A stretch of 64,000 nucleotides of DNA from Planctomycetota bacterium (GCA_030605475.1 JAUWIG010000011.1:62001-126000), one strand, 5' to 3'; counted from the stretch's first letter, positions 58,760 to 62,916 are shown. Notes: a model not told the origin generated them from the letters alone. Translations and numbers: made by a program.

Positions 58760-58825
58760 TGCCCCTTGCCTTTTCACTTCTTTTGTGTTATTTTCTGTGC
58801 CTAAAGGCGTAATAAGGATACGAAG

Positions 58826-58855
58826 TTGTTTGGCGGGTTATACAGACTGTATAAT
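58826..58855 (+). promoter_or_regulatory. Sigma-70-type promoter of the three-ORF operon
   Basis: -35 TTGTTT (58826-58831), 18-bp spacer, perfect -10 TATAAT (58850-58855). Confidence 0.6.
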
Positions 58856-58880
58856 CATTGTTCGAATGGGAGAATAGACC

Positions 58881-58988
58881 ATGACCGAGTTAAATGAAGA
58901 AAGGATGCTGGAACTGATCTCCGGTGAGGAATCCGAATCAGTCGAGTTCAAGACGGCCATCTGCCTTAAGGCGCGAAAGGGACATTGA
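58881..58988 (+). CDS. 35-residue AlbA_2-like fragment
   Basis: ATG at 58881 with GGGAGA upstream and a promoter before that. The product MTELNEERMLELISGEESES continues VEFKTA, which matches the opening of AlbA_2/Schlafen-like DNA-binding domains (x-x-E-S-x-x-x-E-F-K), then diverges and stops. Either a truncated remnant of a larger AlbA_2 gene or a leader peptide coupled to the next ORF, whose ATG lies 3 bp after the TGA. Confidence 0.5.
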   Translation: MTELNEERMLELISGEESESVEFKTAICLKARKGH

Positions 58989-58990
58989 CG

Positions 58991-59866
58991 ATGGCATCAC
59001 CAGTCCTAAGCTCTCAGGATACCTGCTCCGTATGTGGTGCTCCTCTCGAAGCCACTATGCGGCACTGTCCCACATGCAGGACCGACGCCGGTGCCCCGAA
59101 TGTTCGGCGCTGCCGCACCGATGAGAATCTGAAAGCCCTGGCTGCAAGGTTTGATGATGCACAAGCCAGAGCTTCTGCAAGCGGCTGTGCGAAGGAGTTC
59201 AGCGATTTAGCTGATATGGTAGAGAACAAATCTGGTGTTGTAGTCGCTATGCCAGCACAGGTGGCGATGGCACTATTCCAGGACCCCAACTCGTTATACA
59301 CGAACTACGAACAGTTGGTAGGTGCCAACGTGCGAAAGCCTGCAGATTTCGACAATGATCGGCAGCGATGCGGAACGGTGGGAGTACTGTTCGGAAGCTA
59401 TGCGAAACACATAGCGTATGGTGCATTGTCCCTGACAGAGGAAGGTTCACCCACTTATGGTGACGTCCACTGTCGATTGCGCTCTGTCACTATTGATAAG
59501 CGCACTTCTTTCCTTGTAACGAATAGTTACAGATTCGTCCGGGATTATAGCATCGTTGCTGGGGACAAGTTACCGGCTGGTTACATGGCATGCTGGAATC
59601 ACCGGCACAGTCTTGTTCTTGCGAAACTGGCGGACCGACTTTCAACTGGACAGACCGAATCTGATTGGCTGGTGCTCCTCATTCAGTCGGACGGCAAGGA
59701 TCGACAGAATGATGATTTCGTTGAAGCTCAAATTTATGAGGGTTTCGATAGAAACGCTATCGAGTCTATGGTAGCAACCACCGGTAAGATCTTGAAAAAA
59801 GCTGATAAAATGTTCTTTAAATTAGCTATTTCCGAGTTCAAACGTCTTGGAGGGACAACGAAATGA
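58991..59866 (+). CDS. Zinc-ribbon protein of unknown function
   Basis: 291 residues from the ATG at 58991 (AAAGGGAC 7 nt upstream). N-terminal zinc ribbon CSVCGAPLEATMRHCPTCRT (about 12-31). The rest, about 60-290, is globular and unrecognised: MPAQVAMALFQDPNSLYTNY, GSPTYGDVHCRLRSVTIDKR, NDDFVEAQIYEGFDRNAIES. The TYGDVH...SFLVTNS...VEAQIYEGF order is faintly like ADP-ribosyltransferase folds, but I would not assign it. Its stop overlaps the TPR gene by 4 nt, so the two are translationally coupled. Confidence 0.65.
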   Translation: MASPVLSSQDTCSVCGAPLEATMRHCPTCRTDAGAPNVRRCRTDENLKALAARFDDAQARASASGCAKEFSDLADMVENKSGVVVAMPAQVAMALFQDPNSLYTNYEQLVGANVRKPADFDNDRQRCGTVGVLFGSYAKHIAYGALSLTEEGSPTYGDVHCRLRSVTIDKRTSFLVTNSYRFVRDYSIVAGDKLPAGYMACWNHRHSLVLAKLADRLSTGQTESDWLVLLIQSDGKDRQNDDFVEAQIYEGFDRNAIESMVATTGKILKKADKMFFKLAISEFKRLGGTTK

Positions 59867-61956
59867 TTGGGATCTCGTCAAGAAGCGCGGGAGTTCTTCT
59901 TCTTCCCAAATCAGGAACAGACGAGTACTCCGTTCTCGATGTAGTCGGGGGGGAGGAGCAAGACCCGGTTGAGGCCAAGTACCTCTATTCAGCCGTGCAG
60001 GACTGGGAGGAGATCGGGGGTCCCGATGCCGACTCTCTTCTGAAAACAGCTTCTCGTGAATATTGGCTCGCCCAGACTGTTTCCCTTCTTCGATTGGCAA
60101 TCGGCGGGCTTGAAGAATCCCTTGAGAAGGAAGTTTTGGAACATGTTGAGGAGCTCCTCGGCTCCCGTGTGTCTTCTGAGACAGTCCTTGATCGCCTCCT
60201 CGTCGCACCCTTGGCCGTTCCAGGTTCTTGTGTCGCCCTTGCTAAGTCTGCTCTGAGTGACGGTTTCTCGGCAGTAGCATCTATTCTTGACGAGTTGGCG
60301 GAGTTGCAGCCACTGCTCCATAGATTGACCGACCTCTGGCTGTCTCTGGCGGAAATAGCGTTTAGCCAATTCTCAGAGTCGAAGGAAAGGATCTGGGCAA
60401 CAGTGGTGGAGAAGTGCGGGATAAAGCAACTCCTCAAAGCTGGCAGCAGACATGATTTCATAACTAAATGGAATCTTCTGGTGTTCCACTTCCCCACACC
60501 TCAGTCTCGGTCTGGAGTAAGTATACTAGGAAAAGAACTCTCACGTCGATTATTCCCCAGTGAAGCACAAGAGGAGATAATGATTGGCACTGTGCTGGAA
60601 GAGGGCGAACCTGAGCCGCGTTATCAGATAGAGCGCGTGATAAAAGATCACGAAGTTTTCGAGAGCGTGAAAAAGCAAATTGCCGCCATCGCACAGGCTG
60701 TTTCTGAAGGCCGCGACGCGAGAGCAAGGAAGTTTCTCAGAGAACTCATCCAAGAACAGACTTTATCCTCGAGCGGAGAGAGTTATGCGGTGAAGTCGCT
60801 ATGCAACATAGCCAAACGTTGTGCTGATATGTTCAGAATCGATTTCGAGGTCGTTTGTCTCGACAAGGCCCTCCAGTTAGACCCCTTAGACGCGTGGACT
60901 CTTGTCCAGTACGGGGACCACCTAAAACGGGTGGAGAACTACGACGGCGCACTGGGGGCTTTTGAAAAAGCAGAAAATTTGGGAGAAAGCGTCGTCGCAA
61001 AATCATCTGTAGCAGACGTGTATTCCCAGCAAGGTGACTATGCAAGGGCCATTCTTACCTATGAAGCCATACCGAACTTCCACGACTACCCCGAGGTACT
61101 CACTGCGATTGCGGATAATCTCCGAAAAAGGGGACGTATGAAAGATGCCCAGGAAGCCTACCGGGAGTTGATCTATCTTGCAGAGCAAGGACTGCCTGAA
61201 TTCGTCGGGAGCGAGATTCGGGCTCAAGCAGGCATAGCAGAGATAGCGAAGAGACAAGGAAAACTCGAGGATGCATTGCAAACCTACTATGGAATCCTAG
61301 CGCGACAAGACATAGGCGATCGAGACAGACTCATCTACAAACTAGGGCTGTGCAATGTTCTTAAGCTCATGGAGAAATTCGACGATGCGTATGCGGTCGT
61401 GGACGAAGTCATCCAGCAGTACCCCTTCGTAATGGAAGCCCGATTCATCCGGGGATCGATTCTCGGCTTGGTTGGTCGGGAACTGGAAGGACTGAAGGAC
61501 TTACCCGAAAGCAGCGTTTCTCGTTCTTGGCGAGAATGGTTGCGGCGTTATTATCGTGGTCTTCTCCTTTTGAAACTCAAAAGGTTTGGAGATGCGAAGA
61601 AGAACCTTGTAGAAGAACTCCCCAAAGCCATCGCTTCTGGGGAAGAGAAAGCTATTCTCCGTATGGCGGCCGCACTATGGTTCCTCAGAGAGGACGAGAC
61701 TTTCGAAGCGGATGGGATTCTGTCAGAGATCCCCGACATGCATGACTGCCACGCACAGTATCTGTCTTTGGTCTTGAAACTACACTCGGCAACGCGGAAA
61801 AAAGACCTCGCCACAATGGATTCATTGAGGAAGCGGATCGCTGGGCTCCAAGTTGTGGATGCGGGATTGGAGAAAGCCGTTGTGGCACTTGGCGAGAGGA
61901 ATTTCTCTCTTGCCTTAACCTACGAGACGGACGCTCTCCTTAAACTAGCCGCATAG
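59863..61956 (+). CDS. Large TPR-repeat protein coupled to the zinc-ribbon gene
   Basis: 697 residues, cytoplasmic (no signal or membrane helix). The N-terminal 300 residues are helical and unrecognised. TPR-like repeats run from about 305 to 540: DALQLDPLDAWTLVQYGDHL-type segments, ENYDGALGAFEKAENLGESV, GDYARAILTYEAIPNFHDYP, GRMKDAQEAYRELIYLAEQG, GKLEDALQTYYGILARQDIG. Probably a protein-protein scaffold for the zinc-ribbon partner. Base composition is richer in G/C and less repeat-laden than the neighbourhood, which may indicate transfer. A strong terminator follows. Confidence 0.7.
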   Translation: MIGISSRSAGVLLLPKSGTDEYSVLDVVGGEEQDPVEAKYLYSAVQDWEEIGGPDADSLLKTASREYWLAQTVSLLRLAIGGLEESLEKEVLEHVEELLGSRVSSETVLDRLLVAPLAVPGSCVALAKSALSDGFSAVASILDELAELQPLLHRLTDLWLSLAEIAFSQFSESKERIWATVVEKCGIKQLLKAGSRHDFITKWNLLVFHFPTPQSRSGVSILGKELSRRLFPSEAQEEIMIGTVLEEGEPEPRYQIERVIKDHEVFESVKKQIAAIAQAVSEGRDARARKFLRELIQEQTLSSSGESYAVKSLCNIAKRCADMFRIDFEVVCLDKALQLDPLDAWTLVQYGDHLKRVENYDGALGAFEKAENLGESVVAKSSVADVYSQQGDYARAILTYEAIPNFHDYPEVLTAIADNLRKRGRMKDAQEAYRELIYLAEQGLPEFVGSEIRAQAGIAEIAKRQGKLEDALQTYYGILARQDIGDRDRLIYKLGLCNVLKLMEKFDDAYAVVDEVIQQYPFVMEARFIRGSILGLVGRELEGLKDLPESSVSRSWREWLRRYYRGLLLLKLKRFGDAKKNLVEELPKAIASGEEKAILRMAAALWFLREDETFEADGILSEIPDMHDCHAQYLSLVLKLHSATRKKDLATMDSLRKRIAGLQVVDAGLEKAVVALGERNFSLALTYETDALLKLAA

Positions 61957-62072
61957 TTCACATTCACAGATTTCGGATTTTTGGGACAGGTGGGGTAACT
62001 CCGCCCAGAGGACCCCTGCCTAAGAATTGCAGGGACAGGCGGGGCTAAACATAACGGCATAAATCACCAGAG

Positions 62073-62106
62073 CGGCCAAAAAAAATGCTTTTTTGGCCGT
62101 TTTTTT
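62073..62106 (+). terminator. Strong Rho-independent terminator
   Basis: CGGCCAAAAAA / TTTTTTGGCCG stem with a short ATGC-containing loop, followed by seven T. Ends the three-ORF operon. Confidence 0.9.
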
Positions 62107-62107
62107 G

Positions 62108-62136
62108 TTGACTTTTGTTTGAAAATCTGTTAAAAT
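62108..62136 (+). promoter_or_regulatory. Promoter of the STGPRT-family gene
   Basis: TTGACT (62108-62113), 17-bp spacer, TAAAAT (62131-62136). Same boxes as the minus-strand promoter at 31479-31507. Confidence 0.75.
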
Positions 62137-62307: not shown

Positions 62308-62916
62308 ATGACTACCGAAGCACAAACTTGCGCCAACCGCCGTAACGCACAAAAATCGACAGGCCCACGCACCAGCGAAGGCAAGGCCGCCATCTCACAA
62401 AACGCCGTCAAACACGGCCTCTTGGCCCGCCACGACGTAATCAGCTCAGAAAGCCAGGCTGACTTCGACCTCTACCGCCGGCAGTTGCTCGCCGAGCTGG
62501 CCCCCGTCAGCCCAATGGAATCTATGCTCGCAGAACGCATTGTTACTCTCTCCTGGCGGCTAAAACGAGTTGGACGAATCCAGAACCAGGCCATCGACGC
62601 CCTGAACGCACGTAATACCTCCAGCCCACTAACAAAACTCACCCAATCCCTGTCTTTCAATATCGCCGGCAAATCGCTAAGCAATGCGGGCGGCTTTAAC
62701 GGCGAACTAACTCTCGGCCGTTTGGCCATAAAGGACTTCTCAAATGCAAGGGTCCTCGACCGACTCTTAATGTATGAACGCCGAATAGAGCACAGTCTCT
62801 ACAGAACGATACTCGAGCTTCAAAGACTCCACCTCATCAGAAAACTGGACACGGGATGTGAAATGCCAATAACCTTGGAGCGAAGAGGAAACCCCTTAGG
62901 GGAATTAACCAATTAA
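62308..62916 (+). CDS. NAQKSTGPRT-family protein (hypothetical)
   Basis: 202 residues. N-terminus CANRRNAQKSTGPRTSEGKA and AISQNAVKHGLLARHDVISS, a pattern that recurs in many hypothetical proteins of planctomycetes and some other phyla, often in several copies per genome. The rest is helical, with SMLAERIVTLSWRLKRVGRI and LDRLLMYERRIEHSLYRTIL. The NAxKHG segment may bind nucleic acid; no catalytic motif. Its stop lies within the 8-mer array. It is the cargo of a dispersed composite repeat, so it may be connected with that repeat's spread. Confidence 0.75.
   Translation: MTTEAQTCANRRNAQKSTGPRTSEGKAAISQNAVKHGLLARHDVISSESQADFDLYRRQLLAELAPVSPMESMLAERIVTLSWRLKRVGRIQNQAIDALNARNTSSPLTKLTQSLSFNIAGKSLSNAGGFNGELTLGRLAIKDFSNARVLDRLLMYERRIEHSLYRTILELQRLHLIRKLDTGCEMPITLERRGNPLGELTN

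What the first reader, a model, noticed from the sequence alone, without database searches (positions are those of the whole stretch)
58826..61956. Three-ORF operon of unknown function with its own promoter and terminator
Promoter 58826-58855, a 35-residue AlbA_2-like ORF, a 291-residue zinc-ribbon protein, a 697-residue TPR protein, strong terminator 62073-62106. ORF junctions are 2 nt apart and 4-nt overlapping, so translation is coupled. The unit is free of the heptamer arrays that fill its surroundings and differs in composition, consistent with recent arrival. A two-protein module of an uncharacterised catalytic partner and a TPR scaffold is typical of unexplored defence or signalling systems.
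Basis: inference. Interest (0 to 1): 0.7.

Follow-up and report, generated by a model that had tools for sequence, protein, structure and literature searches.

The report
Integron-delivered candidate phage-defence gene pair
The 'promoter' in front of this unstudied gene pair is a recombination site of bacterial gene-capture elements (integrons), the first gene looks like a distant ADP-ribosyltransferase, and the same kind of site precedes known anti-phage genes in related bacteria, so this is probably a captured phage-defence module.

Summary
The coding layout is real. The promoter and three-gene readings need revision. The 'promoter' (core 58836-58860) is a copy of a 25-bp site found in 45 of 119 relatives and in a distant Planctomycetota family. 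Its junction matches the integron core GTTRRRY. It occurs in co-oriented arrays, recurs with different neighbours, and can follow integron-integrase genes; one full-length intI lies 18 nt upstream. I read it as the att site of 'reverse' integrons (intI co-oriented with cassettes). The host genome has no intI over cut-off, and no 3' att site was found, so this is a stranded cassette-type insertion. The 35-aa 'AlbA_2' ORF is probably a fossil. The real unit is two genes, conserved as a pair in four Planctomycetota and a Rhizobium plasmid. Gene 1 is a zinc ribbon plus a domain distantly related to DUF3626 (hhalign 81-83%, P about 1e-5), the domain of the ADP-ribosyltransferase SopF. Gene 2 has a shared N-domain plus a variable C-domain: TPR here, a complete ribosomal protein S2 in Rhizobium. 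Genes behind the same sites elsewhere include many anti-phage matches (TmtA, HEC-05, ApeA/HEPN, TIR, Mrr); a length-matched control looks like housekeeping. Best reading: an integron-delivered, ART-type anti-phage module. Enzyme activity and defence are inferred.

The parts
58811..58860 (+). Integron-type att site (class B variant); core GGTTATACAGACTGTATAATCATTG at 58836-58860, exchange point G|TT at 58860/58861
   Evidence: Same core in 45/119 relatives, reversed-pattern control 1 hit; 95 sites give junction consensus GTTAGGC/GTTRRRY; follows intI genes or remnants elsewhere
58838..58854 (.). 17-bp palindrome TTATACAGACTGTATAA, overlapping TATAAT (58850-58855)
   Evidence: Perfect copy in the window, chance expectation 0.02
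58881..58988 (+). 35-aa ORF, probably a decayed 5' gene fragment
   Evidence: Stop in G034, absent in G040, different end in L154, no Pfam hit, no codon-position bias
58991..59866 (+). Gene 1 (291 aa): N-terminal zinc ribbon plus DUF3626-like domain
   Evidence: Homologues; C12/C15/C26/C29 invariant; DUF3626 profile match
59258..59788 (+). DUF3626-like (putative ADP-ribosyltransferase) region of gene 1, residues about 90-266; motifs YG..hcrL...I..RTSF..tNS and DDFVEAQIY
   Evidence: hhalign P 8.6e-6, score 46.2 against at most 20.0 in 60 shuffled controls
59863..61956 (+). Gene 2 (697 aa): shared N-terminal domain (about 1-240) plus TPR array
   Evidence: Pfam TPR; N-domain shared with G166 gene 2 and, weakly, with Rhizobium P0012
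60784..61512 (+). TPR region of gene 2 (about residues 308-550), the variable C-terminal part
   Evidence: Pfam TPR_2/TPR_12 over cut-off; replaced by ribosomal protein S2 in Rhizobium P0012
62069..62103 (+). Terminator-like hairpin; belonging to the unit not shown
   Evidence: 15-bp stem plus T-run; similarity to G040 ends at the gene-2 stop

Best explanation
A foreign two-gene module was delivered by a planctomycete 'reverse' integron: IntI recombined it at the G|TT of an att site, leaving that site as its 5' border (shown by comparison; the recombination event is inferred). The att site puts a TATAAT about 25 nt upstream of the first start codon of the insert and so may also supply transcription (inferred). 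Gene 1 is a zinc-ribbon protein with a DUF3626-like, probably ADP-ribosyltransferase, domain (relationship supported; activity inferred). Gene 2 binds it through a shared N-terminal domain and senses or restrains through a variable C-terminal part, TPR here and ribosomal protein S2 in Rhizobium (domain swap shown; role inferred). On phage infection the partner releases gene 1, which ADP-ribosylates a host or phage target, possibly in translation, and stops infection (inferred from gene 1's kinship and from neighbouring cargo).
For: Site: 25-bp core 1-7 times per genome in 45/119 relatives, reversed control 1, and in most genomes of distant family f52. 95 sites: GTT in 83, top 7-mer GTTAGGC, ORF start at a median of 22 nt downstream, 88/95 against 65% at random positions. 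Arrays at 0.3-0.8 kb spacing, same orientation. Same cassette genes with different upstream halves; similarity begins at the core, and in the MTRSE pair ends inside the next att site. Full-length intI (455 bits) with an att palindrome 18 nt after its stop, and partial intI genes directly upstream of cores at three further places. Module: next to the site in G000, G034 and G040, in three unrelated contexts and with two att variants; L154 lacks the site and its similarity stops at the core. Pair conservation. DUF3626 relationship; SopF has DUF3626 (PMC6682159) and is an ADP-ribosyltransferase (PMC10333799). Cargo: against control.
Against: No att site was found 3' of the operon, and the host genome has no IntI over the family cut-off. 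The seven full-length IntIs of the window's own family have no such site nearby. Gene 1 is below Pfam's cut-off for DUF3626 and PADLOC has no model for either protein. The structure model failed (mean pLDDT 34). Few homologues exist. The Rhizobium gene-2 N-domain match is weak (11.1 bits against at most 4.1 in 500 shuffles). A TATAAT is partly forced by the palindrome.
Confidence: 0.5

Rival explanations
1. The conserved element is not a recombination site but the operator-promoter of a regulon: a dimeric regulator binds the palindrome over the -10 and controls many unrelated genes, this operon among them.
For: Perfect 17-bp palindrome over TATAAT; TATAAT intact in 74/95 sites; ORF starts close downstream.
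Against: Junction consensus is the integron core GTTRRRY; sites follow intI genes or remnants and form arrays; identical genes carry different upstream halves. The 51-nt short form lacks the upstream region yet keeps the core.
Confidence: 0.08
2. The pair is a toxin-antitoxin (stabilisation) module kept by the integron, with the ART-like protein as toxin and the partner as antitoxin, without a specific anti-phage role.
For: Two tightly coupled genes; integron arrays are known to hold toxin-antitoxin cassettes (reviewed in PMC8876359); one sampled cargo gene matches an addiction-module family.
Against: The partner is large with an exchangeable sensor-like C-terminus; the other cargo is dominated by defence families.
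Confidence: 0.25
3. The pair modifies the cell's own ribosome or translation apparatus (housekeeping or stress modification), which would explain the S2 fusion.
For: Complete S2 domain fused to the gene-2 N-domain in Rhizobium.
Against: Very rare and patchy: 3 of 99 relatives, 3 of 294 across the phylum including the window's own genome; associated with att sites; the TPR version has no ribosomal domain.
Confidence: 0.1
4. The cassette is a decaying relic with no present function.
For: Lost 3' att site, no intI, fossil first ORF.
Against: Genes 1 and 2 are intact in the window and G040 at 74% identity; gene 1 differences favour third codon positions (53 against 28-35).
Confidence: 0.1

Closest known systems
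Reverse (unusual) integrons of Treponema, Blastopirellula and relatives
   Same: intI transcribed toward attI and the cassettes; IntIs of Treponema, Kuenenia and Blastopirellula cluster (PMC3607928, PMC6557892)
   Different: Here the last ~26 bp of the att site are nearly invariant across two Planctomycetota families and include a palindrome and TATAAT; the window locus has no intI and no 3' att site
Single or clustered attC sites lacking integrase (SALIN/CALIN)
   Same: att site(s) and cassette-type genes without intI in the genome
   Different: Only the 5' att site remains here; scored with sequence evidence, not with the IntegronFinder model
DUF3626 family (PF12294), including the SopF ADP-ribosyltransferase
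   Same: Collinear YGaL..GsPxYG..hxxL...xRT(S/T)F..xxS and D(F/Y)(V/I)EAxx motifs; profile match P about 1e-5
   Different: Added zinc ribbon; conserved W202, R205 and K212-L213-D215 block; below Pfam cut-off; obligate partner gene
CmdTAC (mRNA ADP-ribosyltransferase defence, PMC11618068) and DarTG
   Same: Works-like comparison: ART effector kept with partner protein(s) in one operon
   Different: No sequence relationship shown; no SecB-like chaperone or macrodomain found; two genes
Vibrio gene-less promoter cassettes (PMC11014356)
   Same: Cassette-borne promoters serving downstream cassettes
   Different: Here the promoter-like element would lie in the recombination site itself

Membership tests
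Integron gene cassette | GTTRRRY core at the 5' junction | tested here: inconclusive
   Window reads G|TTCGAA: GTT kept, RRRY not fully; across 95 sites GTT in 83 and GTTRRRY in 29
Integron gene cassette | Site recurs as co-oriented arrays with unrelated genes and shuffled junctions | tested here: met
Integron gene cassette | att site at the 3' end of the cassette | tested here: not met
   None downstream of 61956; similarity to G040 ends at the stop codon
Complete integron (this genome) | Integron integrase gene (TIGR02249 over cut-off) | tested here: not met
   Own genome best hits are partial Xer-like matches
Reverse integron type (elsewhere) | intI co-oriented with and directly upstream of the att site | tested here: met
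   G361:C1:1941044-1941988, 455 bits, att 18 nt after its stop; partial intI at G239, G352 and G361 beside cores
DUF3626 (PF12294) | Pfam gathering score | tested here: not met
   No hit at E up to 5
DUF3626 (PF12294) | Profile-profile similarity with collinear motifs | tested here: met
   hhalign 81-83%, P about 1e-5; 60 shuffled controls score at most 20.0 against 46.2
ADP-ribosyltransferase | NAD+-dependent transfer, ART fold | not testable with these tools
   Structure model failed, pLDDT 34
SLFN AlbA_2 (35-aa ORF) | Pfam PF04326 match / intact ORF in homologues | tested here: not met
   No hit; stop in G034, absent in G040
Known anti-phage system (PADLOC) | HMM match to a defence protein | tested here: not met
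   No hit for the window proteins
CmdTAC | ART toxin, antitoxin and SecB-like chaperone | tested here: not met
   No SecB-like domain; two genes only

The most novel reading that the evidence does not exclude
A new class of bacterial immune module: a DUF3626-like ADP-ribosyltransferase effector held by a partner whose exchangeable C-terminus acts as sensor or decoy (a full copy of ribosomal protein S2 in Rhizobium, TPR here), spread among anaerobic Planctomycetota by reverse integrons whose att sites carry their own -10 box, so every captured gene arrives with a promoter.
Probability: 0.2. Interest if true: 0.85.

Novelty: new variant of a known kind. Interest (0 to 1): 0.62.

Why it matters
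It links three things that can be tested. (1) Integrons of uncultured anaerobic Planctomycetota, including what look like anammox bacteria, appear to stock anti-phage genes. (2) Their recombination sites contain a conserved -10 sequence, which would address the open question of how cassettes far from Pc are expressed. (3) An ART-like protein with a partner that can carry a whole ribosomal protein S2 would be a decoy-type sensor of a kind I did not find described. The 25-bp site also gives a handle for finding further defence genes in these genomes.

Tried and rejected
AlphaFold model of gene 1 from four sequences: pLDDT 34, not used. Phage, plasmid and viral-contig searches with gene 1: no phage or viral relative, one plasmid relative. 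Operator/regulon reading of the palindrome: considered seriously, dropped after the intI and array evidence. Linking the sites to the seven full-length IntIs of the window's own family: no site near them. LexA box: considered and dropped from memory of the E. coli consensus (arms in the opposite order); not tested. AlbA_2 as first gene: not supported. Single-sequence DUF3626 comparison was weak and was redone with profiles. Covariation of the class A stem: only modest (one pair with 18 CG, 6 GC, 3 TG).

Full report
What is there. Gene 1 has a zinc ribbon, gene 2 TPRs. A 15-bp hairpin with a T-run lies at 62069-62103, but similarity between the window and its relative G040 stops immediately after the gene-2 stop codon, so that terminator cannot be assigned to the unit. 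The stretch has the most deviant tetranucleotide composition of 122 window positions, although its GC (0.510) is like that of its neighbours.

The first ORF is probably a fossil. In G034 the same reading frame contains a stop; in G040 it is missing and the upstream site joins almost directly to gene 1; in L154 it ends differently. Differences are not concentrated at third codon positions (10/3/9 and 7/4/6), whereas in gene 1 they are (35/28/53). Pfam finds no AlbA_2 in it; a real SLFN_AlbA_2 gene exists elsewhere in the genome.

The 'promoter' is an integron att site. It holds a perfect palindrome (TTATACAGACTGTATAA). A 25-bp core around it occurs in 45 of 119 relatives, up to 7 copies per genome, with one hit for the reversed pattern, and again in most genomes of a distant family, f52, while most other planctomycete families lack it. 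In 95 sites the core is followed by TT; GTT is present in 83 and the commonest 7-mers are GTTAGGC, GTTAGGT and GTTAGCA. This is the integron core-site pattern GTTRRRY (established knowledge; the GTT/AAC criterion is also used in PMC6557892). Sites occur in co-oriented arrays at 0.3-0.8 kb spacing. Two recurrent cassette genes show where the exchange happens: they carry different upstream halves in different genomes, similarity begins at the core, and for the second gene it runs on into the left half of the next att site. Most full sites are 84 nt, some 51 nt, with paired L''/L' arms.

The integrase. In f52 the DNA just upstream of many sites encodes the C-terminus of an integron integrase. TIGR02249 finds partial intI genes directly upstream of cores at G239:C1, G352:C4 and G361:C1:2978395, and a full-length gene over the cut-off (455 bits) at G361:C1:1941044-1941988 with an att palindrome 18 nt after its stop. 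The integrase is co-oriented with the cassettes, as in the reverse integrons of Treponema and Blastopirellula; the IntIs of Treponema and Kuenenia cluster together (PMC3607928, PMC6557892). G205 (4.41 Mb) is probably a Kuenenia, by size only (inference). The window's genome has no IntI over the cut-off, and seven full-length IntIs of its own family lack this site nearby. The window locus is therefore a stranded insertion: a 5' att site but no 3' site and no intI.

The module arrived with the site. Three genomes carry it behind such a site in three unrelated contexts and with two att variants, class B in G000 and G034 and class A in G040. A fourth homologue (L154, 70% identity) has no site, and its similarity to the others stops at the core.

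The two genes belong together. Homologues are rare: 3 of 99 relatives for gene 1, counting the window's own genome, three named MAGs in GTDB, one distant planctomycete and one two-stop fragment among 294 genomes, one Rhizobium plasmid, none in phages or viral contigs. Wherever the next gene is readable, gene 2 follows. In distant G166 gene 2 aligns with P0003/P0006 over residues 91-230 (26% identity, pairwise E 3e-6). On Rhizobium pRL9b4 the ORF overlapping gene 1 by 14 nt is 510 aa: about 260 residues weakly similar to the gene-2 N-domain (11.1 bits against at most 4.1 for 500 shuffles), then a complete ribosomal protein S2 (PF00318, 1.4e-96); the record annotates the S2 part alone as rpsB. 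So gene 2 looks like a fixed N-domain with an exchangeable C-terminus.

What gene 1 is. Pfam, NCBIfam, PADLOC and PDB sequence searches give only the zinc ribbon. The motif YGaLS..GsPtYG.vhcrL...I.kRTSF..tNS ... DDFVEAQIY suggested DUF3626 from memory, and I tested that. A single-sequence comparison was weak. Against a profile of seven DUF3626 proteins the gene-1 family scores 45-46 with probability 81-83% and P about 1e-5; 60 column-shuffled controls reach at most 20.0 and the reversed profile 15.1. DUF3626 is the domain of SopF (PMC6682159), an ADP-ribosyltransferase with an I-Y-E triad like diphtheria-toxin-type enzymes (PMC10333799). That gene 1 has this activity is an inference.

What its neighbours in the same niche do. 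Among 76 different first genes behind these sites, Pfam finds Mrr, HNH, GmrSD, ApeA/HEPN, TIR, Abi_alpha, PIN and addiction-module families among the 25 of 42 families shown, and no obvious housekeeping. PADLOC matches 56 families. Among the 20 largest, near-full-length or long matches are HEC-05 (1.7e-104), PDC-S11 (8.7e-116), PDC-S21 (1.1e-108), PDC-S58 with an ApeA domain (2.1e-81) and TmtA (1.1e-95), with weaker matches in four to five more. A length-matched set of 76 other genes from the same loci gives 21 PADLOC families, best 7.5e-38, and a Pfam list of housekeeping enzymes. The comparison counts families, not proteins, so the enrichment is described rather than tested statistically.

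Mechanism. Shown: att site, two-gene conservation, domain exchange in gene 2, distant DUF3626 kinship. Inferred: capture by IntI; transcription from the TATAAT that 74 of 95 sites carry; ADP-ribosylation by gene 1; control by gene 2; anti-phage effect. It works like other ART-based defence modules such as CmdTAC (PMC11618068), but no membership is claimed.

Confidence. Integron origin of the 5' element about 0.85; gene 1 as an ART-fold protein about 0.6; anti-phage function about 0.45 (own estimates).

Noticed in passing
L152:12800-14332 (Rhizobium leguminosarum plasmid pRL9b4): A 510-aa ORF fuses a gene-2-like N-domain to a complete ribosomal protein S2; the public record annotates only the S2 part as rpsB.
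   Followed up: partly
G000: C3:71444, C19:35242, C48:27608, C4:25674, C10:23653, C56:1276: Six further copies of the att core in the window's own genome, one in a tandem pair (C19), with no integron integrase over cut-off.
   Followed up: partly
L064 (7699), L062, L081, L101: A class of sites lies only a few bases to tens of bases after a conserved ...SNTV.AVL stop, in L064 the end of a fibronectin-III-like ORF; unexplained.
   Followed up: no
L102-L108: Full-length IntIs in the window's own family without this att core nearby, suggesting at least two integron types in these Planctomycetota.
   Followed up: partly
L170/L171 (G205): Repeated unit: intI 3' end, palindrome GGTTTATACAGACTGTATAAACC, then 134 bp to an 84-nt att site; several dispersed copies of integron heads with decayed integrases.
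   Followed up: partly
window 62108-62136: Good sigma-70-like promoter (TTGACT-17-TAAAAT with TG) upstream of the 202-aa ORF at 62308, which has no Pfam match.
   Followed up: no
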